This document shows positions 39,081 to 60,720 of a stretch of 64,000 nucleotides of DNA, one piece after another. Position 1 is the first letter of the stretch, and each line of letters opens with the position of its first letter. The position numbers were made by a program, and so were the translations under genes. The stretch is from Loripinus fragilis (lineage: Eukaryota; Mollusca; Bivalvia; Lucinida; Lucinidae), in assembly GCA_964019695.1 (NCBI GenBank), contig OZ026524.1, positions 64,363,066 to 64,427,065 of the forward strand. The letters run 5' to 3'. The notes beneath the pieces were generated by a model that worked only from the letters and a program-made list of their open reading frames with translations, was not told where the DNA came from and ran no database searches.

Positions 39081-39101
39081 TATGTGTTATTTCCTTTACA
39101 G

Positions 39102-40665: not shown

Positions 40666-40669
40666 AAAC

Positions 40670-41636: not shown

Positions 41637-41790
41637 TGCTTTACATCCCAAATTTCCTGTCATGTCGGGACAATTTCCTGTCTTCCTGGGTTACACCGGT
41701 ACTAAGCAGAGGATAAAGTGTCTTGCTCAAGGACACAACCCAGTGCCTCTTGTGAGTCTCAAACCAGAGACCCTTCGATCTCAAGTTTAA
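41637..41790 (-). mobile_element. Old SINE family B relative
   Basis: TTCCTGGGTTACACCGGTAC, TGTCTTGCTCAAGGACACAA and CAAACCAGAGACCCTTCGAT follow the order of a minus-strand family B SINE, but with many changes. The head is degraded. Confidence 0.6.
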
Positions 41791-42961
41791 AACTACGGTA
41801 AATCTTGTATTAGTTCGTACAGTAAAAAATAATTATTTTTCGCTGTGTACGAACTAATAAAAATTATTTTTCTGAGAAACGGGACTGTACGAACTAATAA
41901 AATGAAATTCTGAAGATCGAAAAACGGGACCAAAAACATGCGAACATTGCCAAAGAGGGAGGAATTTCTGTTTATCCTTTTAGCCTAATTACAGGCTGAA
42001 TGTCTGATCAGTATTTTCAATTAAACTAACATTCTTAATAGCATGTGAAAGATTGAAAAGAAACAACCAAACAAAAAAGTCCGGATTGCCCTTTCAACCG
42101 ACTCGCATGCAATGTGCGTTATACCCGGCGATATCACCCGGTTACAGGCCAACTTTACATAGGCCTGCTTTACGGAAGAGATGTCACCTCGGACTTTTTC
42201 TACGACGATTGTCTTGATTGGAATCATACTCGGACCCACTGGGTCCGAGGAATCATAACAAAAATACAACTTCTGTTCACTATCGACGGCTAGCTCTACA
42301 ACGTAACAAAGCAATGTATATCGCAGCTTTCATTTTTGGTCATGATGTAGATTCTTATTTTCTTAGAGCCCTCGAAAGTGCAGCATAGTAGTAGACAAGA
42401 CAATACATGTACGTACATTCAGTGTACGCGTACACTCATTGATTCGGAATGAAAACTGAAAATGAAAATGGCGACTTCTAAGTATGAAATATGAACAACT
42501 GGAATGCAGAACTCTCATGAATCAGAGTAGTACATTTCTCTGCCTTCATATTGTAAAAGACCCACAACTTACGATTTTGCGAATGCTTATTCCATTTAAA
42601 GGCTTTGTATGAACACCTATATTTCTGCATAGGTTGGTTGGTCCGAGTCTCCATCATACGTCGTATTCCTTGTGGCGACATAACATGCTCAGCTTGTTCG
42701 CACACCCCCTTACGTGTTAGCTCGGACCCAATATAGCTCGGTGTTAGGCTGTTAGCATTTTAAGATTATGATAATGGCAATCAATGTAGAACCAGATTCC
42801 TGTACTTTGTCATCTTCGGTAGCTTGACCATGGAAAAGTCATTACATGAGAAAATCTGTCTTTCGTGATTGAGGCTGACTGACTCTTTTACATGGATGCA
42901 CATGCTAGTCTTTGCACTGCTAACTGAACGCCATGCTATCTCGTGTACACCTTGCTTTCCA

Positions 42962-43235
42962 TGCGCGGATCCAGGATTTTATGTCAGGGGGGGGGGTCCG
43001 GGTCAATCTGACAAAAAAGCCCTGACAACGTTTATTTTTAGTCCTCAGCTTATTTTACTGAAGTCAAATGGTTAATTTCGAAGAAAACCATCATTTTTCA
43101 AGGTTCCAGAGGGGGTCCAACATTTTCCATGGGGGTCCAAATTTTTCCAGGGGGGTCTAATTGCTTATACCTTATAGAAACCCATATAACTTGTAATTTT
43201 CCAGGGGGTCCGGACCCCCCCTCTGGATCCGCACT
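42962..43235 (+). mobile_element. GGATCCAGGA MITE with G-runs, copy 1
   Basis: It begins TGCGCGGATCCAGGATTTTA, contains GTCAGGGGGGGGGGTCCGG and repeated GGGGGTCCAA, and ends CCCCCTCTGGATCCGCA. Ends are inverted. An inverted copy lies 130 bp downstream. Confidence 0.78.
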
Positions 43236-43361
43236 TGCTATCTCGACCAGCAGGAGATAGCTTTTTTCCGTTAAGTCGTCGTTGGGTGGTATTTTTCAGT
43301 TTTATTTAAATTTTGATAGACCATGATTCTGTAAGCAAACAGTGGCGTCAGGCGACCCCAC

Positions 43362-43638
43362 ATGCTGATCCAGAGGGGGATTAGGGGGTCCGGACCCCCC
43401 CCCCCCCCCCTCTGGAAAATCACAAGTTATATGGGTTTCTATGGACACCCCCACCCCCTGGAAGAAGTTGGACCCCCTCCTCCCCTCTGTAATAAAACCA
43501 TTGGATCCACTCTGTAAACTGTAAAATAAGTTGATGACTAAAAAAAGCATTGTCCTGACTGTTTTCTGGCCGTCGAGCCTCGACCGCATCCCCACCACCC
43601 CCACCCCCCGCCTGACAAAAATTCCTGGATCCGCGCAT
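43362..43638 (-). mobile_element. GGATCCAGGA MITE with C-runs, copy 2 (inverted)
   Basis: In complement it follows 42962-43235 (GTTATATGGGTTTCTATGG, AATAAGTTGATGACTAAAAA and the TTCCTGGATCCGCGCATG end). It holds a run of about 17 C. The two copies face each other inside the 41796-44783 element. Confidence 0.78.
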
Positions 43639-44855
43639 GAACCCTATTCGACTTGTTCATAACGTGCAGGCCACTGTTTAATGTGTAATGTACATTTTCT
43701 TGCGTCAAGGCCATCATCACGTGCGACCCAAAACTTAACAACACGTGGCCAGAAAGACTGTGTGGATGTGCAGGCTTGTCTGAGCCTTCGCTGGTTGCAT
43801 GTGCGAGAGGTACCATAATCTCATGAACTGGCTCGTTTCATAGACAGCCCAATGTAAAGTATGATTCAGAAGCATGTATAAATCACTTTTCATCTTGGTT
43901 TGTGCGTCTGTGCGAACGTGTGATGATCCACAGGAATCATTTAATGTGTAAGACCGATAATACAATTTCATGAGAGCGCCGCGCTAGGCTCATCAGTGTC
44001 GTCTTTGTTTGATAAAAAGTTCCAACGGATATACAATGTATAATAGTTATTTTATTAGGCTTATTGCGTGCGCCTTTATGTGAAACTTAGAAATGAAATT
44101 GATGCACGCACATTTAAAGCACAGCTAATTAGTGGGGGTACGTAGGTGTCTAGATTCTTCATCCACTCCAAAACTTTGAGTTACCCGACGAGATTGCACA
44201 AAAGCACAGGCTCCCCTGAGCCTTCGCTGATAACATTTGTGATAAACACCAGCCGATATGGTTTTGTCATGCTCGGATCCAGTGATTCAAAAATTTTAAG
44301 ACGCTTGGGCATATTTATGACACAGAAAGACCAGAAAGGCTCAATGATCACAGACACGTAGGACGACACTGTGTGCATGCGCGCGTGGTTGTGTACGTGT
44401 ATTTGATTTTTATCATGACTGGACAAAATATCTCCGCGATTTGCATCAGTCAGACGTTCATTGAACCTAGCATTTATCATTGAATAAAAGTTTGGCATGC
44501 ATCAATGCTGGATGCACGCGCATAAGCGACACTGACGATCGCACTGACAGGCGAAACGCTCCTGTTCCGCTGATATGTTTGTTAACTGACGTGCTCGACG
44601 AAAAACGAAAGCATCGTAGATTGACCAAATGAACGGAAAAAACGTTGTGTACGAACTATTAAAATTACAAATAGGAAAAATGACCACTGTACGAACTAAT
44701 ACATGACATTTTGTGCTGACCGGTCATGAATAATTTATGGTGTACGAACTATTCGAGTGTACAAACTAATACAAGATTTACCGTATTAATTCTTTAATTG
44801 CTTGTGTCAATTTTATTTTGTTGTCTGCAGATAACCATTACAAACAATTTTCACT

Positions 44856-44912
44856 CAGATCAGGCATGACAAATTTTCAGGCCTGATCTAGATCAAAACT
44901 GTATGACTTTGT
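44856..44912. repeat. Hairpin repeat, CAGATCAGGC arms
   Basis: CTCAGATCAGGCATGACAAA faces TTCAGGCCTGATCTAGATC. It belongs to the 5232 family. Confidence 0.5.
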
Positions 44913-45030
44913 GATTGTATTCCTGAAAGTTTTTTGAAAAATTTAATATCGAAAAAAAGTTGGCAGACGACAAAAATGCATGCAAATTTACCCGGCATGC
45001 AAAGAGTAAGGCCTACCTATGGTATAATTC

Positions 45031-45205
45031 AAGCCTCCAGATAAGAGTGTGTAATCAAAAAGTGTTTTTCTTATTTCTCAACCAAAACATTTGTTGTGGG
45101 TACTCAGAAGAACCGTCTTAATGAGCACCCAAAACACGTGTTAAAACTGATGGATAAGAAAATAATCACAATTTTATGCTAAAAAATTTGTTTATCTAAA
45201 CCTGT
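45031..45205 (+). mobile_element. Hairpin MITE copy 11 (family H), right arm lost
   Basis: CCTCCAGATAAGAGTGTGTA, CTCAACCAAAACATTTGTTG, then GAACCGTCTTAATGAGCACC, where most of the right hairpin arm is deleted. The right end is intact (GTTTATCTAAACCTGTGG). Confidence 0.8.
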
Positions 45206-45329
45206 GGTGTAAGTATGAGAGCATGTGTGCTTAAGGGGATATATCTTTCAAAAGCTCTTACTTGCTTGAAATTATTCCTGTATAAACAAAAATTGCTTTT
45301 TTATGGAGGATACGGATACCTTTGGCCAC

Positions 45330-45412
45330 ATTTTGAGCACCCAAAACACATGTTAAAACAAATGGAAAAGAAAATAACCACAATTTAATGCTAAAATATT
45401 GCTAATCTTGAT
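45330..45412 (+). mobile_element. Hairpin MITE fragment (family H) next to the exon 12 acceptor
   Basis: The right half only: GAGCACCCAAAACACATGTT through ATGCTAAAATATTGC. It ends within about 10 bp of the acceptor TCTTTTGTAG, so the sequence just upstream of the splice site derives from the MITE. Confidence 0.75.
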
Positions 45413-45421
45413 CTTTTGTAG

Positions 45422-45575
45422 AAAACGACCAGCCTCTCATGAAGAACCCGCACAGTCTCCAGTTTCAAAGCGAACAAGAGAGGGATCTCCCGCACTGTCA
45501 ACACACAGTAGGAAATCAGGGAAGTCCGGAAGAAATCTGGATAAAGAGGGAGATCTTGACAAGCTCAGCGATAGG
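45422..45575 (+). CDS. ZC3H13: ZC3H13-like, window exon 12: KR-SP block
   Basis: Acceptor TGATCTTTTGTAG, donor ATAGG|GTATG. It reads RKRPASHEEPAQSPVSKRTR, EGSPALSTHSRKSGKSGRN, LDKEGDLDKLSDR. Vertebrate ZC3H13 has a KKRYRNEGSPSPRQSPKRRR block after the RE tract, and this exon is in the same position with the same SP and KR pattern. It is a likely nuclear-localisation and phosphorylation segment. Ends in phase 0. Confidence 0.87.
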
Positions 45576-45637
45576 GTATGTACTTGAGGTCAAGATAAAC
45601 AAAAATTAATCCAATTATAAACCCAATCACCTTTTAT

Positions 45638-45841
45638 AGTAAAACCTGTCCTAAGCGGCCAGTCAAAAAGAAGACAAAAATTGGTTTTCAATACCTATTA
45701 TCACTTAATGTAGGTCGAAAGTATTGCAGAATGCTCCAAGAGAGCATTCTGCAATACTTGCGATCTTCATTAAACTACCATTTGTCTTTAAGACCTTTGT
45801 TTTGTCTGCTTTTGAGTGGCCACTTAAGACAGGTTTTACTG
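45638..45841. mobile_element. AGTAAAACCTGTC MITE, copy 1
   Basis: The left end AGTAAAACCTGTCCTAAGCG and the complement of the right end AGTAAAACCTGTCTTAAGTG match, and both are flanked by TA. The centre is a hairpin GTATTGCAGAATGCTCCAAG/AGAGCATTCTGCAATAC. TA sites suggest Tc1/mariner-type mobilisation. It lies 62 bp after the exon 12 donor. Confidence 0.85.
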
Positions 45842-45844
45842 TAT

Positions 45845-46130
45845 AGCTATGGTTTCCTCTTTAATGGCATGATAGTGGGTCAGTCCTGAGGCTCGATGAC
45901 AACCTCAACATAAACTTTCATCGGTGGAGTGGTGCCTGATGCATGTCTTTGACTGGGCTCGCCGTGGCTCAACTTGAGGTTTTCTTTAGCTCTGAATGTC
46001 TGTGATCAATGATTCAAGGGGCTTCTTCTTTGTTTCATTATTCTATGATTGTTTGTTTCTCTGTGATTAGCATTGCATAAGTGAAGAAGGCTTCATGCAA
46101 GCTAAATAATTTCTGTGTTTTAACATAGGG
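45845..46130. other. Intron sequence with no recognised feature
   Basis: No open frame, hairpin or repeat boundary recognised. Confidence 0.35.
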
Positions 46131-46132
46131 TT

Positions 46133-46380
46133 CAAGCTGGGCCCTGTCAGTAGGAAGAAGTGACTTCTCCCTCCAGGAAAATTAGGGAGAAGTCACTATC
46201 AGACAGGTAGAAGTTATAGCGCAAAATTACGACATTTTCTGTCAGTTTAGAAGCAAATTAGTCATTACACATACTATTGCCATTAAATGGAAGGAGAATA
46301 CGATGCAGTGGTGGTAGATTGTCACCACAGTTTGTGTGGTGACAGAATGAAAATGAGTCTTCCCTGGGTCCCATTTAGGG
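46133..46380 (+). repeat. Interspersed repeat, inverted relative to 10107-10372
   Basis: AGGGTTCAAGCTGGGCCCTG, AATTAGGGAGAAGTCACTAT, TGGTAGATTGTCACCACAGT and GAATGAAAATGAGTCTTCCC match the complement of the earlier copy in order. Confidence 0.65.
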
Positions 46381-46485
46381 GAAAATTTCAGCCCATAGGT
46401 GACTATTTTGCCCTAGTCACCTTCTAACTTATTCCCTTTAAATTACGAGCAGCAGAGTATAGGGAGAAGATTTCACACCCTCCTC

Positions 46486-47040
46486 CCTATTGTTGTTGCT
46501 ACCATTGTGTGTGGGAGCTTTGTGTCGGGTCTTTGCTTTAGGGTACAGGGTGGCCAATCACATGGTCTGCCTGATTGGGTTCACAGACTTTACAAGCCAG
46601 TAATTGCTGCAGTTTTCCAGATTACCTCGAACAATAAAGTGTGTACCCGATTGCGGAGAATTTCCCATTTTTTCTTCAGTTGTTTGAGGTCATCTGAGAA
46701 ACAACGGCAAACCCAGGAGAAACTTTGCCACAGTCTTGTGCTGAAAAACATGAGGGTTTTTTTTGCACTTTACGGGATGAAATTTGACTTAGTCTTGGTA
46801 TTAGGAATTACTGGTTCAGGAAATCCCTGAACCCAATCATGCTGACCACCTGATTGGCCACCTTGTGGTATGTTTTTTGGCATCCTTTCTAGTTTACCAA
46901 TCATCTTGCTGAGGAAGAGTGAGCTGGTTGCTTTACTTTTAATTGTGTTGAGGCTGTCTGTGTTCTGTGTTTGTTTCTCACGATGCCGTGGGTTGATCTG
47001 CAGTCTGCGATTGTGGCAGCTCCTGGTCACAAACAGTAGA
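46486..47040. repeat. Repeat with GGTGGCCAATCA inverted inner segments
   Basis: AGGGTGGCCAATCACATGGT faces CACCTGATTGGCCACCTTG. Also CTGATTGGGTTCA faces TGAACCCAATCATG. The outer TGTGTGGGAGCTTTGTGTCG and GCTGGTTGCTTTACTTTTAA parts resemble a segment inside the 4.6-kb element at about 24730-24930, so one sequence family occurs in both places. Confidence 0.55.
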
Positions 47041-47234
47041 ACTTCAGTGGCTTGAACTCTGATGGCTCATTCACCTGCGTTGGCTAGAACTATCATTATG
47101 ATCACCACAGGTCATTTTTTGCATAATCCACCCTGGATGGCTGGAACTACTCTTGGTTAGAACTACTTTTCATGGACCGAAGCATGTTCGGACCATTGAA
47201 GTTCTACTGTACTTAATTTTTTATCGTTTGTAAT

Positions 47235-47745
47235 ATATTCTCATGCTAATAAAAGAAGGTCACCCCAAATTCACCGGTTTTGTTGAAAGTAAAACAGATA
47301 TGAACATGTTATGAATATAAATTTATATATTGTAAGTCATATCTTGTATGACCGCCACCTTTATGAATGCATTCTATGAGGCTTTTGCACATGCTTGAAA
47401 GAAGCCGGGGGTTGTACCCCACCCCCTTGTTGAAAACATTGCCATTGATCAACCAGCTAGCTAAAGTGTTCGAATTCGGGAAATATGGCAGCTGGGAAGG
47501 GATAAAATCATGTATCCGCCGGCCTAGAATATCCCGGGGGTGGCTGATCATAGATGGATCGGCACCAGAAGGCCAATCAAAGGGGTATGACATGACCACC
47601 AAACAGTTCCTTGCAGGTATGCTGGCATTATCTTGCTGGAAGAGAAAATTGTTTCCAGCATTCTGATAAATTTGGAGGACGTGTGGGTGAAGGGCTTCAT
47701 CTACATAGCGTGGCCTGTAAGTGACCCCCGAATTACTATGCAAAT
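47235..47745 (-). pseudogene. Tc1/mariner transposase C-terminal remnant
   Basis: The minus-strand frame contains NSGVTYRPRYVDEALHPHVL, FLFQQDNASIPARN (the QxDNAxxHxA motif with the second catalytic Asp), DILGRRI and a terminal GGGHTRYD. These are in the order of a Tc1/mariner C-terminal half. The WPA.SPDLNPIEH block is recognisable but broken. The gene is 5'-truncated and not functional. Confidence 0.8.
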
Positions 47746-47812
47746 TAAACGAACCTTATACAAAGCTCGAGTTGGCCTTTTTTTTAGCATGAGTATATAA
47801 TATCTCTTACAG

Positions 47813-47869
47813 GGCAGTGACAGATCAAGACATACAGCAAGAAGTAAGGGGAGAGAGGACAAACTTGGG
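47813..47869 (+). CDS. ZC3H13: ZC3H13-like, window exon 13 (57 nt)
   Basis: Acceptor AATATCTCTTACAG, donor TTGGG|GTGAG. It reads GSDRSRHTARSKGREDKLG, 19 codons in phase 0 on both sides, so it could be skipped without a frameshift. RS-type composition fits its neighbours, but the exon is short and rests on splice sites, frame and composition only. Confidence 0.72.
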
Positions 47870-47882
47870 GTGAGTATATATA

Positions 47883-48088
47883 GCAAAACCTGCATAAAAC
47901 GGCCACTCAAAAAAAAGACAAAACAAAGACCTAAATGACAAATGGTAGCTTAATGAAGGTCAAAAGTGTTGCAGAATGATCCCCCTTGGAGCATTCTGCA
48001 ATACTTTTTACCTGCATTAAGCGATAATTGGTCTTGAAACCCAATTTTCAGCCATTTTGAGAGTGGCCGTTTTACACGGGTTTTACTG
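47883..48088. mobile_element. AGTAAAACCTGTC MITE, copy 2
   Basis: Left end AGCAAAACCTGCATAAAACG, right end CGTTTTACACGGGTTTTACT, TA-flanked. Inner hairpin GTTGCAGAATGATCC/GGAGCATTCTGCAATAC. It starts only about 12 bases after the donor of window exon 13. Confidence 0.82.
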
Positions 48089-48166
48089 TATACATATAGA
48101 ACATAGCAGCTATATCGCTAGATCTGCATTAGCTTAGCTCAAGAATAGCAGTTCACTTGATAAGCA

Positions 48167-48364
48167 TGGAGCACAGTGGCTCAGTGGTAGAGTGCCTGTC
48201 TTGAGGCCGAGGGGCCGCGGGTTCGAGCCTCACCAGCCTTACTGCGTTGTGGTCCTTGAGCAAGACACAATTATCCTAGCTTAGTACTTGTCAACCCAGG
48301 AAGACCCGTCCCTGTTTAACTGAAAGATTGTTGATTGGACGTAAAGAATCAAATCAAACAAAAA
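48167..48364 (+). mobile_element. SINE family B, full length
   Basis: Head GGAGCACAGTGGCTCAGTGG, box B GGGTTCGAGCCTC, 3' end TGGACGTAAAGAATCAAATC. The 12-bp duplication ACTTGATAAGCA lies at 48155-48166 and 48365-48376. Confidence 0.92.
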
Positions 48365-48399
48365 ACTTGATAAGCACACTTGCTCTTATACTTACACCA

Positions 48400-48527
48400 C
48401 AGGTTTAGATAAACAATTTTTTTAGCATAAAATGGTTAATATTTTGTTGCCCATCAGTTTTAACATACGTTTTGGGTGCTCAAAAGAACCGTCTCATTGA
48501 GACGGTTCTTTTGAGTACCAACAACAG
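48400..48527 (-). mobile_element. Hairpin MITE copy 13 (family H), truncated
   Basis: CACAGGTTTAGATAAACAAT to a perfect hairpin GAACCGTCTCA/TGAGACGGTTC and GAGTACCAACAACAG, where it stops. The right third is missing. Confidence 0.82.
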
Positions 48528-48574
48528 CCTGTTGATCTGGATCTACATTGTTAATATAGGAATGAAATTTTATT

Positions 48575-48690
48575 TGTTGGTTTTTATCTATGTGTAAACT
48601 CTGGCAAATCACTCACCGATTGAATAAAGCCCAAAGGGCTTTATGTTAAATTTGTGAGTGATACGCCGAAATTTACACATGAATAAAAAA
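48575..48690. repeat. Palindromic repeat
   Basis: ATGTGTAAACTCTGGCAAAT and CACTCAC face GTGAGTG and GAAATTTACACAT. The centre AAGCCCAAAGGGCTTTA is itself a hairpin. Confidence 0.6.
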
Positions 48691-48699
48691 ACACAATAA

Positions 48700-49670
48700 T
48701 AATTTTTTTTCCTTATAATTCCAACAAAACAGCACATTTATGAAGCCTAAAGTGTTGTTGACAACATTTCAAACACAAAAGCCCACTGAAGGAAAATAGT
48801 TTGTAACCTCTGTCTATGAAAGATGGGGCAGCCATCTTGAAACTTCTGTCAGTTCAAAACTTTGTTTTGCTAAATAATGATTAAAATTGCACTCTATCTG
48901 GAGCGAATATGTGAGTATGAGATCAAAAACAACTCCATTTAGTTTGGAATTGTTTTCTTTAGCTGGCTGGGCTCTTTGAAGAACATTTATATTTAGGCCC
49001 TACCACAGATGGGGTTAACGAAGCACTTACCTTCCATATTAATAGGATGTTAGCGTGAATTTAAAAAAAAAGTGTGATTTGACATGTTCAAACTGCGTTG
49101 AAACAATTCGTTGTTGATGTAGCCTAGGCATTGTTTTGATGGTGATTCTCTTCAATGAGGTGACTGTTTGTTAAGTGACATCACATAACTTGTCATCCAT
49201 TTCCTTTCTTAGAGTTCCCCCCCGTTGCTTTGAAGATGCACCAGCATGTATAGGGTAAAGGCTTTCACATAAGCTTTCGAACATGCTTAACTATATTAAA
49301 ACTGGTGAAAATTTTATAGTATTATGTACAGTTTGTTATTATCAACACAATCTACTACTGTGAAATCAAGGCAGGTATCAAATATTCCTGCGCATGGGGT
49401 TTTATCGAAGTGTAAAAACAATTTAATTTTGCCAACGGACATTCAAAATCTTTGGAAAAATGATAAAAACATTGAGTTGGAATTACAAGAAAACAACAAC
49501 AGAATAATTAAATTCTGAGGATGATAGATAAATAAGCACTTGCGAGTAAAAAGTCAAATATTGGGGATATTACTCAAATAGTATAGTATAGTCCAAATAC
49601 CAGATGTTATATTTGCAAGTGTTTATTATGACTATCTGGAGTATTATAAAGTTATTAAAACACACTTTTT
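48700..49670. other. Intron sequence with no recognised feature
   Basis: AT-rich. The 64-codon open frame at 49324-49518 has no domain and no splice support. Confidence 0.4.
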
Positions 49671-49674
49671 CCAG

Positions 49675-49860
49675 GCCTCCAGATAAGAGTGCGTACCTGA
49701 AAATTATTTTTCTTATTTCTCAACCAAAACATATGTTGTGGGTACTCAAAAGAACCGTCTCGATGAGACGTTACTTTTGAGCACCCAAAACTTATGTTTA
49801 AATAGATAGGGTAGAAAATAATCGCAATTTTACGCTAAATTTTTTTGCTTAACTGGCCCT
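49675..49860 (+). mobile_element. Hairpin MITE copy 14 (family H)
   Basis: CAGGCCTCCAGATAAGAGTG start, hairpin GAACCGTCTCG/TGAGACGTTAC with two changes, end TTGCTTAACTGGCCC. Confidence 0.82.
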
Positions 49861-49961
49861 ATGTTTTTCTTGAACTAAGCTACTGGTATTTCTACATACT
49901 TTTACCATTATTTTAATAGACTGTAGGGATAGTTTCATAATTCTCTTCTTCGGTCATCCGG

Positions 49962-50612
49962 GTATTTTAGGCTTGATTTCACATTGAAGAGATCCGCTGA
50001 ACTATTCCTGACACAAGAGGAATGTGTCGGGAGGCTTTTGCTATGGAAAGAGGCCATTGAGAAGAAGGGGTTGAGGGTAAATGCAGGAAAGACAAAGGTC
50101 ATGATCTGTGGTACAGGCCTGGACCTCTTGCAGAGTTCAGGCAAATACCCATGCGCTGTCTGTCGTACAGGAGTAGGCAACAACAGGATCTACTGCAATG
50201 GCTGCAAAATTTGGGTGCATAAGAAATGCAGTGGGCTACAAGGACTGACACCAAATCCTGATTATAGGTGTGCAAGGTGCATGGAAAATGCCCGCCCTAT
50301 TGATGGTAGGCCACAGAATGAAGTCCAGGTCGGACCTGATAAGCTTGAGGTGGTAGCTTCCTTCTGCTACCTGGGTGACATGCTTTCTGCTGGTGGAGGC
50401 TGTGAAATAGCGGTCACTACTCGTGTGGAAACAGCCTGGAAGAAGTTCAGGGAGCTACTACCAGTTCTCACATCCCGCCACCTCTCTTACAAGACACGTG
50501 GCCATGTATACACTCTTGCGTATGGAGCGCCATGCTCGATGCCAGTGAAACTTGGCCACTGACCAAGAAGAACCTGCAGCTCTTGCAGCGCAATGATAGG
50601 GCCATGAGGATT
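49962..50612 (+). pseudogene. RTE LINE fragment with PHD-like finger
   Basis: The frame from 49984 has QEECVGRLLLWKEAIEKKGL, NAGKTKVMICG and the same C4-H-C3 finger as 16716-17594 (CAVC, CNGC, WVHKKC, CARC), then the VASFCYLGDMLSAGGGCE block. It is truncated at both ends: the endonuclease and most of the RT are absent, and sequence similarity stops after QRNDRAM. It still carries the bases that are missing after YADD in the 14183 copy. Confidence 0.86.
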
Positions 50613-50619
50613 CTCATGA

Positions 50620-51100
50620 AATATCATGCCGTATTTGTTATTTTTGAAAAAGTGGCAAAATTTGCAATTGTCGTCTGCTACAAATTATAGGTTGCGCTTA
50701 AAGGATAGGTGGCGCTTTAAGGGTTAAGAGAATCGCTTGTTTATTTTTTTAAGATACACACATGCACAAACAGCCTTTATAAAACATTTTATGATGTCAC
50801 ATTTTGAACAGGAATATGGCCTTTGTCACCAATTTAGTAAGAGTTGCCTCTCTTAGTAAGTGTGCAATTCTAGTTAGTTCCCTTGGATTTTTTTTAACTC
50901 CTTTAGAAGAATTAATTTTCTAGTTAGCTCCCTTAACAGACTTCACATATTGTAGATGAATTTATAATTTAAAAACATCTTCTTTACCCGTTTCTTTGGG
51001 GTCTAGAATATAATTTATGTTAAAATATAATATAAAACATATTAATTTTATTGAAGAATGATTATTTTGTGTAAAGCTGTACAAATAAAATTGAAAGGAA
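50620..51100. other. Intron sequence with no recognised feature
   Basis: AT-rich. The region upstream of 51107 holds no open frame of note. Confidence 0.35.
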
Positions 51101-51106
51101 CTCAAT

Positions 51107-51159
51107 ATGCAAATATGGGAAATTGAAAATATGCATCAGTATAAAAGCAGGTTTATAAA
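51107..51159 (+). promoter_or_regulatory. Upstream promoter region of tRNA-Sec (octamer and TATA)
   Basis: TATAAA at 51154-51159 lies 24-29 bases upstream of the tRNA. An octamer ATGCAAAT lies at 51107-51114. tRNA-Sec genes of animals use a type 3 RNA polymerase III promoter with a TATA box near -30 and a PSE further up. The TATA spacing fits. I cannot define the PSE, and the octamer could be chance. Confidence 0.6.
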
Positions 51160-51182
51160 GAGTTGGGAATCAGGAGGATTAT

Positions 51183-51269
51183 GCCTGAATGATCCTCAGT
51201 GGTCTGGGGTGCAGGCTTCAAACCTGTAGCTGATTGACGTCAGAGTGGTTCAATTCCACCTTTCGGGCG
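51183..51269 (+). tRNA. tRNA-Sec (anticodon TCA)
   Basis: The 87 bases fold as selenocysteine tRNA. The acceptor GCCTGAA pairs with TTTCGGGC, including one G-U pair. The six-base D stem CCTCAG/CTGGGG, anticodon arm GCAGG-CTTCAAA-CCTGT with TCA at 51218-51220, long variable arm CTGAT/GTCAG, and T arm GTGG-TTCAATT-CCAC follow. The central part is the same as in human tRNA-Sec as I remember it. The variable arm differs from it by paired changes that keep the stem, so the gene looks intact and under selection. It decodes UGA for selenoproteins. It lies in the sense orientation in the intron between window exons 13 and 14. Confidence 0.96.
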
Positions 51270-51270
51270 G

Positions 51271-51274
51271 TTTT
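51271..51274 (+). terminator. RNA polymerase III terminator of tRNA-Sec
   Basis: TTTT directly follows the tRNA 3' end with one G between. A run of four T on the non-template strand is sufficient for Pol III termination. Confidence 0.75.
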
Positions 51275-51417
51275 ATCAATTCATGAAATTATTTTTTTTT
51301 AAAGGCATGAGTTTAACTTTGCATGCTTGGTAATTTTGGATGTTTTTTCTGTTATCTGCTGATCTTTTTCAAAATAAACTGTTTCAAAAAATTCCTTCAT
51401 GAATACCATAAGAGTGT

Positions 51418-51530
51418 AAAACAGTTTGGATCAGGATCAGGCCCAACATTTTGTTGGGTCTGATCTGGGTCCAAGCTGTTTGCAAAGGTTATCAGCAGAT
51501 AACAAAAGTCACCACAAGCGGGGAAAGTTT
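51418..51530. repeat. Hairpin repeat, GATCAGGCCCAACA arms
   Basis: GGATCAGGCCCAACATTTTG faces TTGGGTCTGATCTGGGTCC, followed by TTTGCAAAGGTTATCAGCAG. It is the same unit as 32918-33020. Confidence 0.65.
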
Positions 51531-51931
51531 TAAACTAATTGATAAGAAATAAATTTCAATTAACAATTTGCGCAGAGTGTTTGCTTATCTGGGCCTATAT
51601 GAAAAACAATCAGCAGGCCCCGAGGTTATTAAACTTTTTTCATGCTCAACTCTATTGAGCACGAAATTTCAACTGCTCACAGGGTTTGTACAGACCTTGA
51701 AAAGTCCTTGAATTTGACCTTGGTCCTGGAAAACTCCTGGAATTTGACAAATTGTGCCTTTTATCCTGAAATTGTCCTGGAATTTTGTGAAATTATCCTT
51801 GAAAATATTAATTAGTCCATGAAAAATAAAATACAACAAGTCTCTTCGTATTTATGGGATGCGCAAAAAAACTGTGAAAATCGCAAAAAAACTGAGTGAA
51901 AATCGCTAGATAGACGTGGAAGAGCGAGGTA

Positions 51932-53314
51932 TGTAGGACCTGTTAGTGTAAACGCTCCCGTTGGTGTAAACGTTGACAACAACAGGAGATATTGCTCTTG
52001 TTACTGTAAACATGTTTATTTATAATAATGGTACCGTTAGTGTAAACATTGACAGTAATGGGAGCGATCTCTCCCGTTATTGCCAACGCTTACACTCACA
52101 GGAGCGTGTGATGATAATATTTTTGATATCAACGCTTTTTGTTAAAAATGTTGGATTTTATTTCTTTTCGTTTAATGATAGAAGTTTGGGTCCTTAAAAA
52201 TATAAGGCAACATTATTTAACCATGAAATATAGGTCAGAATGACCTGTATTAATTTTAGGACAACTTTCATGTATAATCAAGTATCATATTCACAAGCAA
52301 ATTTAATCACTTATAAGATTCCACACTGGTTACATCTCATTTGGGTTTGTACTATTTGCTAATATCATATTTGCATGGCAGAATTCTGCAGTTGTAGATA
52401 TACTTAAATATGGACAATGTAATGTAATTCTATAGACCATAGATGTAGAGGGTGCAGCTGAATTTACCAATAGACACGTACCTAAGCGCTCCCTTGAGTG
52501 TTACCATTACCCACGATCAACGTGGTTTGAAGCCAAGACCTCCAATGTTTGGACCCCCCACTTCCACCAAAATGCTCATAAACTATTAAGCTGTCTATGT
52601 GAGATGCACAAATTGGCATCATTACATTTTCTATTGCTTTGAAATGGACTATTCACTCCGGTAGTACCTCGGTAGATAAAGACTGAGCTTTTATGTAAGT
52701 AAGCAGGACAGACTCCGATGTGACATTACCTTTAATCACCTTTTACATGGGTCTACATTGTTATGTTCTCTGATTCCACATTTGCAGTACAGCTGCCTGA
52801 TTCCCCTGTGAGAATGCTTGGAGTTGCGTGAACCACATATGCAGTTGTAGATTTACTATGTTTTACGGAAAATGCAAATCATTGATATTTGATTACATAT
52901 ATTTGTATGTGGTGTCTTGTTGGTTTCAACTCTGTTATCATATGTTGTTTTACAATATTGGATATGCACATGTCAAGATAATAAAACACTTGCTCACTTA
53001 CTAACTATTCATGGTTCAAATATGAGTAGTTACCAAGGTATAAGGCAAAATCACTGGAACTTAATTAAGTAGGTTAGACTGGTCTTAATCCAGTAGTCAA
53101 TGTCAAAAAGTTGGTTCATATGTCTGCAAAAAAGGTCATCTTTTGCATTTTTTTCTTTTTTTCATAATGTAGACACTTATGGTTGAAACTGTTTTTTGGT
53201 CTGCATTATCGCCGCTTAGTGTAAACATGGTCCTGTTTACAGTAACGGGAGCGATATCTCCTGTTATTGTAAACATTTACACTAACGGGAGCGTTTACAC
53301 TAACAGGTGCTACA
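51932..53314. mobile_element. 1.4-kb element with GTGTAAACGCTCCCGTTA-rich ends, GAGGTA duplication
   Basis: The left end TGTAGGACCTGTTAGTGTAA and the complement of the right end TGTAGCACCTGTTAGTGTAA match. GAGGTA flanks both (51926-51931 and 53315-53320). GTGTAAAC alternates with GGGAGCG or CTCCCGTTA several times over the first 170 and last 110 bases. The interior has no recognised frame. It is nested in the 51680-55006 element. Confidence 0.82.
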
Positions 53315-54225
53315 GAGGTATGACTCATATTCTATTCTATTCAATTTGTGCAGTAGTCCTGGTTTTTATCACCAGAATCAGAATCAAAGAAAACGAGTGC
53401 GCCTTTTTCTATTTCCACTTCAACGTTTACGGCGGAAAAAAGTGTGTTTTTTGCGGCGGCTTTGCCGACGCTCTATTATCGCTTTGAACCTAAATTTTAT
53501 GCAAATTTTCGCCAATCAGAAGTATTCTTAAATTGTAATATTCATCACACCAGCTAGAAAACTATGCCCTCATTGGTTAATGCTCAGACTGACCACACGA
53601 TCTTATTATAGATGCAATTTAACTTGAAAATTTCCATGTAAATGGCCGAGAACCAGTCTGTGCACTATTCCTAACAATGGACATTGATCTGGAATATAGG
53701 TCAACTCCCGCTGTACACCATTTCTAATTTGCTTTATTACCATTATTTGCATGCCTTGCTTAATTGCACATAGTAAATAAGTGCAATATAAAATAACTAC
53801 CTAAATCCTATAGGACTTTAACAGCATTATATAAAGCAAATCTTTGTATTTTTTATTTAAGCCATAATGGTTTCCCATATCAAATGCATTACACGATTAT
53901 AGTTATAAATAGTTATGGTGCGTTATAAATAGACAGCCAAAAAACCCACGTTGTAATGTTTATTAATAGCACTTAACAAGATACATCTTTTTAAAAGATG
54001 TATCTTAAAAAAGAGGTTATAATGGGGATGGATATTTAATGTAAATAATGGCACATAATTTCCTACAATTTGAATGTGCCTGCAACCCACAATCCCACAC
54101 TTAGACTCAGATCAACCTGCGCAGCTGTACATGTATCAGGGATTTTGCTATTTCCTTTAGGAAGATGACAAGCACATGCTCTAGTTTCTTTAACTACATG
54201 TATGTCAGACGAACATGTATCACCA

Positions 54226-54310
54226 AATCTCGGGCCACTATGGGCCCGCCAGCGAAACACTTTTCGGATGGTGTTTTTCTGGCGGGCCGAGAGTGGCCCG
54301 ATTTTACGTG
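54226..54310. repeat. GC-rich palindrome
   Basis: CGGGCCACTATGGGCCCGCC faces GGCGGGCCGAGAGTGGCCCG across a loop containing CGAAACACTTTTCGGATGG. It lies inside the 51680-55006 element. Its GC content stands out from the AT-rich surroundings. Confidence 0.75.
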
Positions 54311-55009
54311 CAGTTTTTGAGTCTACATGCATTTATTCCCCCAACCCCGGCTATGGCGAGGTGCCACAGGAAACAGAATGGTTATAGGAGTTAGTCCCAC
54401 ACAAAAGCGATTTGGTATATCAGCATTTCTCTGTAAATAGAGACATTCATAATATGTAAATAGAGTGGTGGAAGTGTAAACCATTTAAGACTTGAAAACT
54501 ACTCCAAGTTGAGATCCGAGACGGGCAGAATCTAGCCTATGTGACAACAACAACAATATGGCATGTTTTTTCCGGGTTTTAAGTTTGTTTCAGTACATGC
54601 ATTTATCGTCAAAATCTCCCGTTTTCTTAAAAACTTTAGGACTAATAACATTGATCCCTAGCCTTTGCTGGTGAAGTGCCTAAAATTTGTAACGATTCAG
54701 ATGCATATCGCTCAACAAAAAGAGCACCAAGTAAAAGAGAGACTAGAAACATAACCACAACTTCCAAATTCTCTGGTTTTAGATCGAACATCCTTTTCCA
54801 GCATGCAAAGACAGGGGGTATAAGGAGATTTCGTCATTTAGTTGTGTTAAAATTGTAAGTATTTGAGAGCCGCCGAATATCTTTTTAAAGATAATTCTTG
54901 TTCGCATTGTATTATACAAATTTGGAAAAAATTGAGAACCTGAAAAATGAAAAAAAATCCTGGAAAAGTTCTGGAATTCTGTTTTCCCATTTCCGTACTA
55001 ACCCTGGCT

Positions 55010-55540
55010 CATTGAAACTAAAATACCGACAAATAAAGAAGTTTCTTGCTTTAAGTCTCTCAGATGTTGTATTTATCATGCTCATAAATGCATTTCACAG
55101 CATGCAAAGAGTTAATGTAAAACTAATACCTGAGGCGAGTGCTTTTGGGTACATTTTGTATTGATGTCAGGCTTTACAAATTCAAGTAAAGATAGGTACC
55201 AGAACCATGAGCTCCTGTGAGCACTGGGGTACAATTCTTTGCGATCTTGCAATCATAGGAGCAATTCATATGTATGCTCATAAGGAAAAGTTTAGTCAGT
55301 ACAGACACTATGTGCAATAATTTTGCTAGACAGTCTTAATATTGACAAAAACCTTACTCAACATGAAATTCTTTTAATTTCCTATAAATCTGAACATTTT
55401 CAACAAAACACTTTGGAACTAAACCCCTTAACTTCATCAAAATCACGCAAAGGCATAAATATCAAAATTCAAATTTCAAAACTCAAAAATCAGTCTAGCG
55501 CGTATAGAAGGGAATTCTCATACCTGCTGCATGTCTAAGA
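55010..55540. other. Intron sequence with no recognised feature
   Basis: AT-rich, with short open frames lacking motifs. Confidence 0.35.
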
Positions 55541-55544
55541 CCTT

Positions 55545-55775
55545 TAAGAAGTTTCCAAGCGGCCATGAAGTGATTACGTCATGTGGAAGTCACTATAACC
55601 CTAACTTCAAGTGGCGTCGTTATCCATGGTCTTCCTGACCGAGGTTTGTCATTTTTACGGCCAGACTGTCGAAAACGTGTTTGCAGACGATAAATTGTTC
55701 GTTCATTATGTCCAAAACTAAGTGGCACATTAGCAACATGTGTACCTGCTTCTAGAAGTCCAAATGCTGTATTTG
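55545..55775 (-). pseudogene. Tc1-like transposase N-terminal remnant
   Basis: The minus strand reads GLLEAGTHVANVPLSFGHNE, RTIYRLQTRFRQSGRKND, KPRSGRPWITTP. This is the Tc1 transposase pattern of a helix-turn-helix with RTI.RL..RF, then the PRSGRPR.TTP linker. A stop follows shortly after. It differs from the copy at 13929 and is a separate degenerate insertion. Confidence 0.85.
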
Positions 55776-56224
55776 TGTAATTTGTCGATAGCCTGGACTT
55801 AAATTTGCTAACACTGAATTTTCTCCAAATTATTGCAATAGGAACAACTCTCTTTCAAAATCGAACAGCATATGAGACAATAGCCCTTCCAGTTTACCGC
55901 AGTACGTGCACATCGTGTATTTTGAAATTTAGTTGATACAGTCTAATAGAGGCATTTTTTGTCACACAATAAACAGATACATGTAAAGTTACAATTAGAC
56001 AACTCATGTATACAATTTGACATATATACATTGTACATGGCGTATATCCAGTATTGTTGATTTTATCAGAAAACATAAATACTGACTAAACTTTTTCTTC
56101 TGAGTATACTCTGAGTATACGCATACTCATAAACTTCTGACCTAGATTTCAGACTGAAAGGCCTTACTGCATTGCTAGCTTGCCCTTGCTCAAGCCTATA
56201 AGAAATTAATAATTCTATATCTAC

Positions 56225-56432
56225 TGTCATAGCTGAATATCATCATTTTCGGGTTTTGATATTCATATAAGTATAAAAAAATAGCATAAAATTGTTGTTA
56301 TTTTCTTGTTTAAGCATGAGTTTTTGGGTGCTCAAAAGAACCATCTCATTGAGACGCTTCTTTTGAGCATCTAAAACATGTGTTTTGGTTGAAAAACAAG
56401 AAAATTTATGTTCAATTATTTTTATCTGAAAG
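56225..56432 (-). mobile_element. Hairpin MITE copy 15 (family H)
   Basis: Reverse orientation. Hairpin GAACCATCTCA/TGAGACGCTTC with two uncompensated changes. ACATGTGTTTTGGTTGAAAA follows. Confidence 0.8.
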
Positions 56433-56487
56433 CCTATGTTCTGTAGCCAGACAGGGAACCAAACTCGTAACCCCAACCCCAAGATTT

Positions 56488-56965
56488 TTAAATAGTCAAT
56501 TCATAACACTATATTTACATTTCAAAGCAATCCTTAAATGAATCTTTAGATTTTTGCGACCGTTCATAGCCTCATGAATTATACAAATTTGATTGACAGC
56601 TGCCAATTTCACTAGCCTGTGCAACACCCTTTGAACATCAAACTCATTCGCCAGAAGTGACACTGGTGTTGCGATTGACAGCGAGCCACACCAGAGTCGC
56701 ACATGCAAAACAAGCCTTTTGTTTGCTCCATTGGCTGTCCATGTTCAAGCTGGCTGTTCCGCTTTTCCGTTTTACACTCCGACAAAACTGTTAAAACAAT
56801 TATATTTTAAATACAATACTGTTTTAATTCCCAAATTAAAAATGATTTTTATATATTTATAATAAAATGTAAATATAAGCAATAAATTCCGCCTTGCTTC
56901 ACTTACTTTGCAAGAGACCCGAAGTATTCATGATTCCATGAACATTCCAAAAATTGAATTAATTG
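56488..56965 (-). repeat. Interspersed repeat, inverted copy of 30488-30948
   Basis: CAACCGTTCATAGCC-type sequence, GAAGTGACACTGGTGTTGCG, GGCTGTTCCGCTTTTCCGTT and GACCCGAAGTATTCATGATT match the complement of the other copy. It lies 85 bp upstream of window exon 14. Confidence 0.75.
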
Positions 56966-57050
56966 CTTAAATAATAATGCACTGTCTACTGCACCCACAT
57001 GCCCTGCCATTAGAAAAGGCTCATTTTGGTAAACCATTTTTCATAACTAG

Positions 57051-57186
57051 GATGTGGATGAAGGAAAGGGAGAGAGTAAAAAGTCAAGGACCCCGGAGAG
57101 GAAAAGGTCGCGGTCACGATCTGTTGATGGGTCAGCCAGTGGTGATAGTAAGAGAAGAAAAACTTCAGATAAACTGGCCAAGGCTG
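57051..57186 (+). CDS. ZC3H13: ZC3H13-like, window exon 14: basic RS/SP block
   Basis: Acceptor TTTCATAACTAG, donor GCTG|GTAAG. It reads DVDEGKGESKKSRTPERKRS, RSRSVDGSASGDSKRRKTSD, KLAKA. It holds a bipartite-like basic nuclear signal and an RSRSRS run. The equivalent vertebrate region is a KKKSIEKKRKKSKGDSD stretch just before FSDWSD. Entered in phase 0, left with one base. Confidence 0.85.
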
Positions 57187-57214
57187 GTAAGCACGTGAGA
57201 TTTTGGTACATATT

Positions 57215-57400
57215 CATAGGTCCAGATAAAAAAAGATTTGAGCGTAAAATTATGAATATTTTCTGACCCGTCAGTTTAAGCATACTTTTTGTGTGCTCAA
57301 AAGAACCATCTCATAGAGACGGTTCTTTTGAGTACGCACAACATATGTTTTGGTTTAAAAATAAGAAAATTAATTTTTGATTACGCTTATCTGGAGATAA
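57215..57400 (-). mobile_element. Hairpin MITE copy 16 (family H)
   Basis: It begins 30 bp after the exon 14 donor (CATAGGTCCAGATAAAAAAA). Hairpin GAACCATCTCA/AGAGACGGTTC with changes on one arm. Confidence 0.82.
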
Positions 57401-57839
57401 CAGTACATTTGTAAGTGAGTATGACCAGAAAACGCCACAATTACATACATACTACAGACCAACCTATGGCACCACGAGGAAGAGTTAAAGAAAGATGACA
57501 GCGATACCACATTCAGGTTTAGATAAACAAAAAATTTGATTATAAAAGTGTGAATTTATTTTTTGAAAAGATAATTTCTATTAAGTTCCTAGAATTTTTT
57601 TTAATTTCATCAACATTACTTACAAAAATTCATAGCTGGAATGTTTGGAGCCTGGCCTTATAAATAGCCATTTTCAGATGAGCCACCCAGGGCCCGAGTC
57701 CCTCTTGTATTATAACATTAGCTAGCCTCTGATAAAGCCAGTTATCAGGATCTACACTGTTTTTCATCCACACGATCAATCCATTATTGTAATGAAATTG
57801 TGCCACTTGACTGGCTGGAAATTTGAAGATGATCAGGCC

Positions 57840-58022
57840 TTTATTTAAAAATGCGTAACTAAGAGTTAATTTTCTTATTTCTCAATGAAAACATATGTTG
57901 TGGGTACTCAAAAGAACCGTCTCAATGAGACGGTTCTTTTGAGCAACAAAAACATTCATTCAATCTGATGGGTAAGAAAATATTTACAGTTTAACGCTTG
58001 AAATTTTTGTTTGTCTAAACCT
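57840..58022 (+). mobile_element. Hairpin MITE copy 17 (family H)
   Basis: Perfect hairpin GAACCGTCTCA/TGAGACGGTTC, right end GTTTGTCTAAACCTGTG. Confidence 0.85.
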
Positions 58023-58377
58023 GTGAATGATATAGCATTCTTGCATGAGAATTTGTTACGTGAAGCTGTTAGAAGCCGCAAAATCCATGTTCGAATCATG
58101 AGATTCACATGCTTTAACTTGAAAAAGCCTAAACTGGGCCCTGATTTGTATGTATGACATGACACTGGAAAGCATTGGGGCTGTGACTGATCATTTTGCC
58201 GATGCTTTCGTTCGCGAAAGTGTTGCACGCGTATATATGACATTGTGGGGACATAAAAACGTTCAAAAGTTTGACACTGACGCCATTTTGTTTTGAGAAA
58301 TCATGTTTAATAAAAGGGATATTTAACATTTTCAGCGCGGTTTATACTGAAATCAGGTAAAATATGCAAGAATAACG

Positions 58378-58516
58378 ATCACACATGTTTGTTTTATTGC
58401 ATTAACACTTGCCGGGTCCCTTGCACGATGTTGCACACTCGGCCTGACGGCTTCATGTTCAAACAGCTTCCTCGGGACCAGGCAAATGTTAATGCATGAA
58501 AAACATGTGTGATCCC
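58378..58516. repeat. Palindromic repeat
   Basis: GATCACACATGTTTGTTTTA and GCATTAACACTTGCCGGGTC face CTCGGGACCAGGCAAATGTT, AATGCATGAAAAACATGTGT and GATC. It folds over about 135 bases. No coding content. Confidence 0.7.
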
Positions 58517-58565
58517 TATATTCATAACTCAAAAAGAAGTCTGAGTGCCCTTATACGAGCATTTG

Positions 58566-58870
58566 CGGATAGAAAAAAAAAATTCAGCATACATATTTTT
58601 TGGTTGAGAAATAATGTGATTATTTCTTTTTATTACACACTCTTAACCAAAGGCCTGCAGTATGTTTGGTAAATACAGTGCCCTCCAACCAAGATAAGGC
58701 CTTCGTGATGCTTAAATTTGTGAATATTTTCTTACCTATCATTTTTTACATACCTTTTGGGTGCCCAAAAGAACCGTCTAATTGAGATGCTTCTTTTGAG
58801 TACCCACAACATATGTTTTGGTTGAGAAATAAGATTTTTTTTTTATTACACACTCTTAACTAAAGCCTGC
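58566..58870 (-). mobile_element. Hairpin MITE copies 18a/18b (family H), adjacent
   Basis: A partial copy (58566-58660, GTTGAGAAATAATGTG and CTCTTAACCAAAGGCCTG) lacks a hairpin. It is followed by a second copy at 58715-58870 with GAACCGTCTAA/TGAGATGCTTC and CTCTTAACTAAAGCCTG. Confidence 0.75.
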
Positions 58871-58914
58871 AGTATGTTGGGTAAATACAGTGCCTTCCAA
58901 GTAAGATTAGGCAT

Positions 58915-59095
58915 AGGTCAAGATAAATGAAAAATTTGTGCTTAAATTTGTGAATACTTTATGATCCATCAAGTTTAACATTTATTTTGGGTGATCATTG
59001 AGACGGTTCTTTCGAGTATCCACAACATATGTTTTGGTTGAGAAATAAGAATTTTTTTCTTCAAGTTTTAGTTATGCACTCTTATCTAGAGGTCA
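58915..59095 (-). mobile_element. Hairpin MITE copy 19 (family H), left arm lost
   Basis: AGGTCAAGATAAATGAAAAA to GGGTGATCATTGAGACGGTT; the left hairpin arm is deleted. It ends CTCTTATCTAGAGGTC. Confidence 0.78.
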
Positions 59096-59164
59096 GATTA
59101 GGGTCCCCAAGGATATTGTTTAAGGCTTAATAGTATCTACTTTCATTCTAGAAATCACTAAATT

Positions 59165-59335
59165 GCTACTCAATTGTGAGCAAGAAAAAGAATCCATTTT
59201 TTGTGTGAGACTGGGATAGAAAAATCTGTCCCTCGCAATCACCGTTTGTCATCGCTTGCCAAGCCTCATGATGCCAATTGGTGATCTGGAGTACAAATGT
59301 TTCTATCCCACCGTCACACTGGTGCTAGATTTTTA
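59165..59335. repeat. Repeat with GGGATAGAAAA ends, copy 2
   Basis: GAGCAAGAAAAAGAATCCAT, CTGGGATAGAAAAATCTGTC and AATGTTTCTATCCCACCGTC match 21157-21330. Confidence 0.65.
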
Positions 59336-59342
59336 TATTGTT

Positions 59343-59758
59343 CAGGTTTTGCGCAGGCTTGAAAAGTACTTAAATATACAGGACTGTCTTGAAAAGTCTT
59401 TGAAAATTAAATTTGCCTTGAAAAGTACTTGGAAAAACACTCAAAGGTTTTGAAAAGTCCTTGAATTTTACCATTTACAGTGGGATTCAACAGTGTTTGT
59501 GGAGACCTAAATCAGTATAAAATTGTGGTGCCTTTATTTGGTGCAGCATATGCTGCACCAAATGAAGTCAACACAATTTTATACTAATTTTCTTAAACTA
59601 ATATCTGTAGTAATGGACTCTAGCATTTCAGAAGTAGAATTTTAATGTGTAAATCAGTATTTTTTTTTAAGTTTTCAGTCCTTGAAAACAGTAGGAAAGT
59701 CTTTTAGAAGTCCTTGAAAAGTCCTTGAATTTTACACAATCTTGCCTGTATGAACCCT
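59343..59758. mobile_element. CTTGAAAAGT-family MITE, intact copy
   Basis: It runs from CAGGTTTTGCGCAGGCTTGA to CTTGCCTGTATGAACCCTG with no insertion. The centre is the palindrome TTTGGTGCAGCATATGCTGC followed by ACCAAA. AGTCCTTGAAAAGTCCTTGA occurs in both arms. It ends 18 bp before the acceptor of window exon 15. Confidence 0.78.
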
Positions 59759-59776
59759 GTGGTTGTTTGTTTTCAG

Positions 59777-59877
59777 AGGGAGGTGAGACTGGAGCAGGGT
59801 TTGACAGTATAGAACAACATTTCAGTGACTGGTCAGATAATGATTCAGATGATGATATTCTTAATCAACCAGATCAG
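59777..59877 (+). CDS. ZC3H13: ZC3H13-like, window exon 15: acidic FSDWSD motif
   Basis: Acceptor GTTTGTTTTCAG, donor ATCAG|GTAAA. It reads EGGETGAGFDSIEQHFSDWS, DNDSDDDILNQPDQ. FSDWSD followed by acidic residues is also present in vertebrate ZC3H13 (FSDWSDED) downstream of the Lys-rich region, which anchors the orthology near the C-terminal third. Ends in phase 0. Confidence 0.9.
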
Positions 59878-59879
59878 GT

Positions 59880-60600: not shown

Positions 60601-60626
60601 TGGATTTAATTATTTGGATATTGTAG

Positions 60627-60712: not shown

Positions 60713-60720
60713 GTTAGTGC

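What the first reader, a model, noticed from the sequence alone, without database searches (positions are those of the whole stretch)
51107..51274. Intact selenocysteine tRNA gene inside an intron of an m6A-writer gene
The 87-base sequence has every structural hallmark of tRNA-Sec. Its variable arm differs from human (as I recall it) by paired changes that keep the stem, which argues for selection. A TATA element at -29 to -24 and a TTTT stop at the 3' end suggest independent Pol III transcription, sense to the host gene. A selenoprotein decoding gene hosted by ZC3H13 might couple or interfere with host transcription.
Basis: partly seen in the sequence, partly recalled or inferred. Interest (0 to 1): 0.8.

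Follow-up and report, generated by a model that had tools for sequence, protein, structure and literature searches.

The report
Ordinary selenocysteine tRNA gene in intron
This is a normal, complete gene for the tRNA that inserts the amino acid selenocysteine, sitting inside an intron of a ZC3H13-like gene in what is probably a bivalve mollusc; such nesting of tRNA genes is common.

Summary
An intact eukaryotic tRNA-Sec gene lies at 51183-51269 (+): ARAGORN calls it, Rfam RF01852 scores it 77.8 bits against a cut-off of 47, full length, E = 2.8e-14, and its unconstrained minimum-energy fold is the expected cloverleaf. The six positions reported as invariant in 553 eukaryotic tRNA-Sec genes, the UCA anticodon and G73 are present. 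A TATA box at -29 and a TTTT stretch just 3' of the gene occur together, at that spacing, at only 27 of 63,099 control positions. So a separate Pol III unit is likely; no expression data were available. The host is a + strand chain of 17 exons (1018 aa, open across 16 junctions) whose best relative is a Dreissena 'zinc finger CCCH domain-containing protein 13-like' protein (40% identity over 45% of the query). The tRNA lies in its 9.2-kb phase-0 intron 47870-57050. The suggested coupling to the m6A writer has no support here: in Drosophila 46% of cytosolic tRNA genes lie in introns of protein-coding genes. Copy number and conservation of the nesting could not be tested. Verdict: new member of a known kind, low interest.

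The parts
51183..51269 (+). tRNA-Sec gene, anticodon TCA at 51218-51220, discriminator G73 at 51269; no encoded CCA
   Evidence: ARAGORN; Rfam RF01852 77.8 bits, full model 1-91; MFE fold gives the cloverleaf, z = -2.63; invariant residues present
51154..51159 (+). TATA box TATAAA at -29 to -24
   Evidence: a TATAAA starting at -32 to -24 occurs at 432 of 63,099 control positions in the window
51271..51274 (+). TTTT, probable Pol III terminator, one base beyond the gene's last base; a run of nine T starts at 51292
   Evidence: TATA and T run together at 27 of 63,099 control positions in the window and 5 of 8,399 in 48100-56899 of the intron
51107..51114 (+). octamer ATGCAAAT at -76, possible Oct-type activator site (weak)
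   Evidence: but octamers are not enriched in the window (9 found, 7.43 expected), and the usual distal element lies about 200 bases upstream
51112..51130 (+). possible proximal sequence element (weak): 12 of 19 matches to a human U6 PSE that I recalled
   Evidence: 3.9% of 5,000 random places score as high, and no molluscan PSE was available
51247..51257 (+). internal B-box-like GGTTCAATTCC within the T arm (consensus recalled)
   Evidence: motif found in the gene, position
47870..57050 (+). host intron, phase 0, 9.2 kb, holding the tRNA-Sec gene in sense orientation
   Evidence: GT...AG borders and continuous reading frame
47813..47869 (+). host exon upstream of the intron
57051..57186 (+). 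host exon downstream of the intron
3687..61834 (+). partial ZC3H13-like gene, 17 exons, 1018 aa in frame, CCCH zinc finger in the first identified exon; the gene's ends lie outside the window or were not identified
   Evidence: PF00642 E = 3.8e-06; Dreissena ZC3H13-like protein E = 3.7e-71

Best explanation
This is a functional nuclear tRNA-Sec gene, probably of a bivalve, that came to lie in a large intron of a ZC3H13 homologue. It is transcribed on its own by Pol III from a TATA-type upstream promoter with internal tRNA boxes, and transcription ends at the TTTT just downstream. The product would be charged with serine, converted to selenocysteine and used at UGA codons of selenoprotein mRNAs. 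Shown here: the gene's sequence, structure and invariant residues, the TATA/TTTT signals, and its place in the intron. Inferred: Pol III transcription, charging and decoding, from established knowledge of the family.
For: RF01852 77.8 bits, full length; ARAGORN; cloverleaf as unconstrained MFE, 1 of 200 shuffles as stable; all six positions reported invariant in 553 eukaryotic genes plus UCA and G73 present (list, check; the mapping of standard numbers onto the sequence is mine). PMC5330540 concludes that G73 is essential and gives C73 and broken acceptor pairs as marks of the human pseudogene. TATA and TTTT at the right spacing together: 27 of 63,099 control positions. Human tRNA-Sec uses upstream PSE/DSE-type elements plus internal boxes and the BRF2 form of TFIIIB (PMC8362101, passages). 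No CCA tail, and at E up to 1e-3 no repeat of the window overlaps 50901-51311. Intron placement from a 17-exon open chain.
Against: No expression, Pol III occupancy or small-RNA data were available. Whether a second copy exists in the genome is unknown (genome search did not complete). G73 alone is no proof of function: the same paper found 145 extra G73 copies with structure-breaking changes. PSE and octamer evidence is weak, and the octamer at -76 is not at the usual distal-element distance.
Confidence: 0.9

Rival explanations
1. The tRNA-Sec is made from the host's Pol II transcript and cut out of the intron, as RNase P RNA is in insects and crustaceans.
For: Same orientation as the host. 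Precedents: Drosophila RNase P RNA is made from a host intron (PMC4287351, passages including the abstract); [quoted passage not shown]
Against: The Drosophila RNase P RNA gene lacks Pol III signals, whereas here TATA and TTTT sit at proper spacing. In that paper the two molluscs examined have RNase P RNA genes with typical Pol III signals.
Confidence: 0.05
2. It is a silent or retroposed extra copy, the true tRNA-Sec gene lying elsewhere.
For: The human second copy lies in an intron, of PARVB, and is a retroposed pseudogene (PMC5330540, section 11). Copy number could not be tested here.
Against: The human pseudogene has lost G73 and several acceptor pairs; this one keeps G73 and all acceptor pairs but the U-U. 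It has upstream TATA and a T run, which a copy of the mature RNA would not bring along; no shared flanking word of 6 bases or more was found between the 40 bases on either side.
Confidence: 0.05
3. The nesting is functional: tRNA-Sec and ZC3H13 expression are coupled or interfere with each other (compatible with the best explanation, so its odds are not additive).
For: Only position and orientation.
Against: Intronic tRNA genes are common (46% in Drosophila). No conservation of the nesting was shown; human tRNA-Sec lies between FOSB and RTN2. The paper search for ZC3H13 with selenocysteine returned 4 papers, none about this by title or start of abstract.
Confidence: 0.03

Closest known systems
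Eukaryotic tRNA-Sec (Rfam RF01852)
   Same: Full-length model match, UCA anticodon, 9-bp acceptor, 6-bp D stem, 4-bp T stem, long variable arm, G73
   Different: No difference seen beyond ordinary variation in stems; host locus not compared with other molluscs
Intron-nested tRNA genes of animals
   Same: A tRNA gene inside an intron of a protein-coding gene; 46% of cytosolic tRNA genes in Drosophila
   Different: Here the tRNA is Sec, with a TATA box upstream, and the host is ZC3H13-like
Human tRNA-Sec 2 (TRNAU2) in an intron of PARVB
   Same: tRNA-Sec sequence in an intron
   Different: TRNAU2 is described as a pseudogene with C73 and broken acceptor pairs; this copy is intact
Intronic RNase P RNA of insects and crustaceans (PMC4287351)
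   Same: Essential small RNA in a host intron; same orientation in Drosophila
   Different: Those lack Pol III signals, and in Drosophila the host promoter is used; this one has TATA and TTTT

Membership tests
Eukaryotic tRNA-Sec (RF01852) | Covariance-model score above the curated cut-off | tested here: met
   77.8 bits against 47, positions 1-91 of 91
Eukaryotic tRNA-Sec (RF01852) | UCA anticodon | tested here: met
Eukaryotic tRNA-Sec (RF01852) | G at position 73 | tested here: met
   importance from PMC5330540 section 11
Eukaryotic tRNA-Sec (RF01852) | Six invariant positions (G18, G19, U33, U55, C61, C66) | tested here: met
   list, check; numbering mapped by me
Eukaryotic tRNA-Sec (RF01852) | 9-bp acceptor, 6-bp D stem, long variable arm | tested here: met
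   8 of 9 acceptor pairs are standard (one of them G-U), the eighth is U-U
Eukaryotic tRNA-Sec (RF01852) | Expressed, charged and used at UGA codons | not testable with these tools
   no RNA data; the genome search did not complete
Pol III gene with external (type 3 or hybrid) promoter | TATA box near -30 | tested here: met
   -29 to -24
Pol III gene with external (type 3 or hybrid) promoter | Proximal sequence element | tested here: inconclusive
   12 of 19 to a recalled human U6 PSE, 3.9% of 5,000 random places as good
Pol III gene with external (type 3 or hybrid) promoter | Distal element (octamer or STAF site) about 200 bases upstream | tested here: inconclusive
   the only octamer within 500 bases upstream is at -76 and octamers are not enriched in the window; STAF site not tested
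Pol III gene with external (type 3 or hybrid) promoter | T-run terminator | tested here: met
   TTTT at 51271
ZC3H13 homologue (host) | CCCH zinc finger and long similarity to a ZC3H13 protein | tested here: met
   PF00642; Dreissena protein named ZC3H13-like, 40% identity over 45% of the query; the part next to the tRNA intron aligns only weakly by BLAST
ZC3H13 homologue (host) | m6A writer complex subunit | not testable with these tools
   recalled for the human protein

The most novel reading that the evidence does not exclude
The nesting of tRNA-Sec in ZC3H13 is old and kept by selection in bivalves, and transcription of the two genes is coupled, linking selenoprotein decoding capacity to m6A writer levels.
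Probability: 0.03. Interest if true: 0.55.

Novelty: new member of a known kind. Interest (0 to 1): 0.17.

Why it matters
It places a selenocysteine-decoding gene, probably of a bivalve, and its likely promoter. That is useful for annotation, since general tRNA predictors are said to fail on tRNA-Sec (PMC5330540, abstract), though ARAGORN found this one. If the nesting proved conserved it would give a synteny marker; beyond that it changes nothing known.

Tried and rejected
Other RNAs in the host intron: a permissive Rfam scan of 44000-58000 gave 14 matches with E up to 1; one is the tRNA-Sec, the other 13 are miRNA families, all below their gathering scores, several matching on both strands as palindromes do.

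Retroposed copy: no CCA, no shared word of 6 bases or more between the 40 bases on each side, and no second copy in the window beyond short matches of up to 18 bases.

The bacterial-type promoter scan does not apply to this organism. Tandem repeats in the intron: three short arrays, none overlapping the gene.

Solved structures: the first 121 residues of the host protein hit only CCCH-finger proteins of other families (9 sequences with E up to 1); the exons from 57051 on gave two chance-level cytochrome matches (E 0.44). tblastn of the two bivalve proteins at E up to 0.01 found only exons between 3.7 and 29.5 kb, none near the tRNA intron. The BLASTP piece that spans the intron is weak (E 14, 27% identity, composition-adjusted), although by eye it carries the matching stretches GSPALSTHS and IEQ.FSDWSD...DDILN. 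The host assignment across the intron therefore rests on reading frame plus those motifs.

Literature: the 31-base tRNA core string is in no held paper. The U6/oyster/PSE search listed 20 of 52 papers, none of the 20 holding the word oyster. Molluscan selenium searches (3 and 9 papers; 20 of 60 listed) led to one snail genome paper with one tRNA-Sec (PMC10075465, passage). Passages of PMC9652321 and PMC8007984 were seen and add nothing decisive.

Full report
What is there. The window holds an 87-base tRNA-Sec gene at 51183-51269 on the + strand (ARAGORN). Rfam's RF01852 matches it over the whole model with 77.8 bits against a gathering score of 47 (E = 2.8e-14 for both strands of the window and 4227 families); it was the only match in the window at gathering thresholds. 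Folded on its own without constraint it gives the five helices of tRNA-Sec at -33.3 kcal/mol, z = -2.63, with 1 of 200 shuffles as stable. The acceptor arm has nine pairs of which the eighth is U-U. The anticodon is UCA, position 73 is G, and the six positions reported as 100% conserved among 553 eukaryotic tRNA-Sec genes (PMC5330540, section 16) are all as expected (mapping of standard numbering mine).

Against human as I recall it (no call supplies the human sequence), the variable arm differs by one pair changed on both sides and one pair turned into G-U. The variable arm is also the most variable one among eukaryotes. This fits selection on pairing but is thin evidence alone.

Expression signals. 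TATAAA lies at -29 to -24, and TTTT begins at 51271, one base beyond the gene's last base. Taking + strand positions 200-63699 of the window as starts of a mock 87-base gene (leaving out 200 bases on either side of the real start), TATAAA starting at -32 to -24 occurs at 432 of 63,099, a run of four or more T within the eight bases after the mock gene at 4,128, and both at 27; none of the 27 also has an octamer upstream within the stretch scanned. In 48100-56899 of the host intron both occur at 5 of 8,399. An octamer lies at -76, but octamers are no commoner in the window than in shuffles (9 against 7.43), and distal elements usually lie about 200 bases upstream. A PSE-like stretch at 51112-51130 is matched by 3.9% of 5,000 random places. 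An internal B-box-like motif is intact. In humans the tRNA-Sec promoter combines upstream PSE and DSE with internal boxes and recruits the BRF2 form of TFIIIB (PMC8362101, passages). The window's signals are thus of the expected kind, with TATA and T run well supported and the rest open.

Host gene. Seventeen + strand exons between 3687 and 61834 with AG/GT borders (chosen so) join into 1018 codons without a stop. The first identified exon codes for a CCCH zinc finger (PF00642, E = 3.8e-06). Of 7,975 candidates scored, two proteins passed E 0.001: 'zinc finger CCCH domain-containing protein 13-like isoform X2' of Dreissena polymorpha (E = 3.7e-71, 40% identity over 45% of the query) and a 'hypothetical protein' of Sinanodonta woodiana (E = 1.5e-48), both bivalves. 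Residues 4-464 align well to the Dreissena protein (E = 3e-33); the part with the exons around the tRNA aligns weakly (E 14), with clear short motifs only, and tblastn found no exon there. The intron 47870-57050 is phase 0 and holds the tRNA gene in sense orientation about 3.3 kb from its 5' end.

Surroundings. A non-LTR retrotransposon fragment, 93.8% identical over 578 bases to another copy at 16709-17286, has its matched part at 50031-50607, ending 576 bases before the tRNA gene. The stretch 50901-51311 has no other match in the window at E up to 1e-3; repeats begin again at 51312. So the tRNA gene is not part of a repeat family seen here.

How it most likely works. A separate Pol III unit inside a Pol II intron yields tRNA-Sec, which serves UGA decoding in selenoproteins. 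The structure and signals are shown; transcription and function are inferred. Pol II excision from the host intron, as for RNase P RNA in Drosophila (PMC4287351, passages including the abstract), is possible, but the insect and crustacean genes of that kind lack Pol III signals. A dead copy as in human PARVB (PMC5330540, section 11) is unlikely because G73 and the acceptor pairs are intact, though that paper also lists G73 copies that are probably not functional.

What is known. tRNA-Sec is generally assumed to be a single-copy gene, though some genomes have several. One tRNA-Sec is recorded in the snail Biomphalaria pfeifferi (PMC10075465, passage). In Drosophila 46% of cytosolic tRNA genes lie in introns of protein-coding genes (PMC9249942, passage). 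Nesting in ZC3H13 is therefore unremarkable in kind. I found no paper on this pairing (listings, the last showing 20 of 60 papers), which does not show that none exists.

Limits. The own-genome search was asked six times and never answered, so copy number is untested, as are expression and synteny. The species is not established.

Noticed in passing
window 9831-9903 (-): ARAGORN's 'tRNA-Ser (CGA)' is the head of a tRNA-derived SINE-like repeat; BLAST with this copy (9731-9910) finds 9 matches in the window including itself, six of them at 87-91% identity.
   Followed up: partly
window 14399-17594 and 49933-50690: Non-LTR retrotransposon with reverse transcriptase (PF00078 E = 6e-22) and a sub-threshold endonuclease match, and a cysteine-rich, PHD-like stretch by eye; a second truncated copy, 93.8% identical over 578 bases, lies upstream of the tRNA-Sec gene.
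   Followed up: partly
window, many places, e.g. near 5580-5610, 31425-31455, 57910-57940: Recurrent short palindrome containing GAACCGTCTCA...TGAGACGGTTC, possibly a MITE; 6 and 8 exact matches to the two arms were counted on the + strand.
   Followed up: partly
window 51312-51534: Repeats downstream of the tRNA gene: 51421-51534 resembles 32909-33023 (85%), 51312-51431 resembles 60445-60564 inverted (80%), and 51365-51486 resembles 5220-5340 inverted (76%); weak miRNA-family matches at 51409-51491 are below cut-off.
   Followed up: partly
window 61814-62383: Repetitive frame with units of the type NIAHVSLNI, by eye, overlapping and following the last identified host exon, which ends at 61834; not tested as a tandem array.
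   Followed up: no
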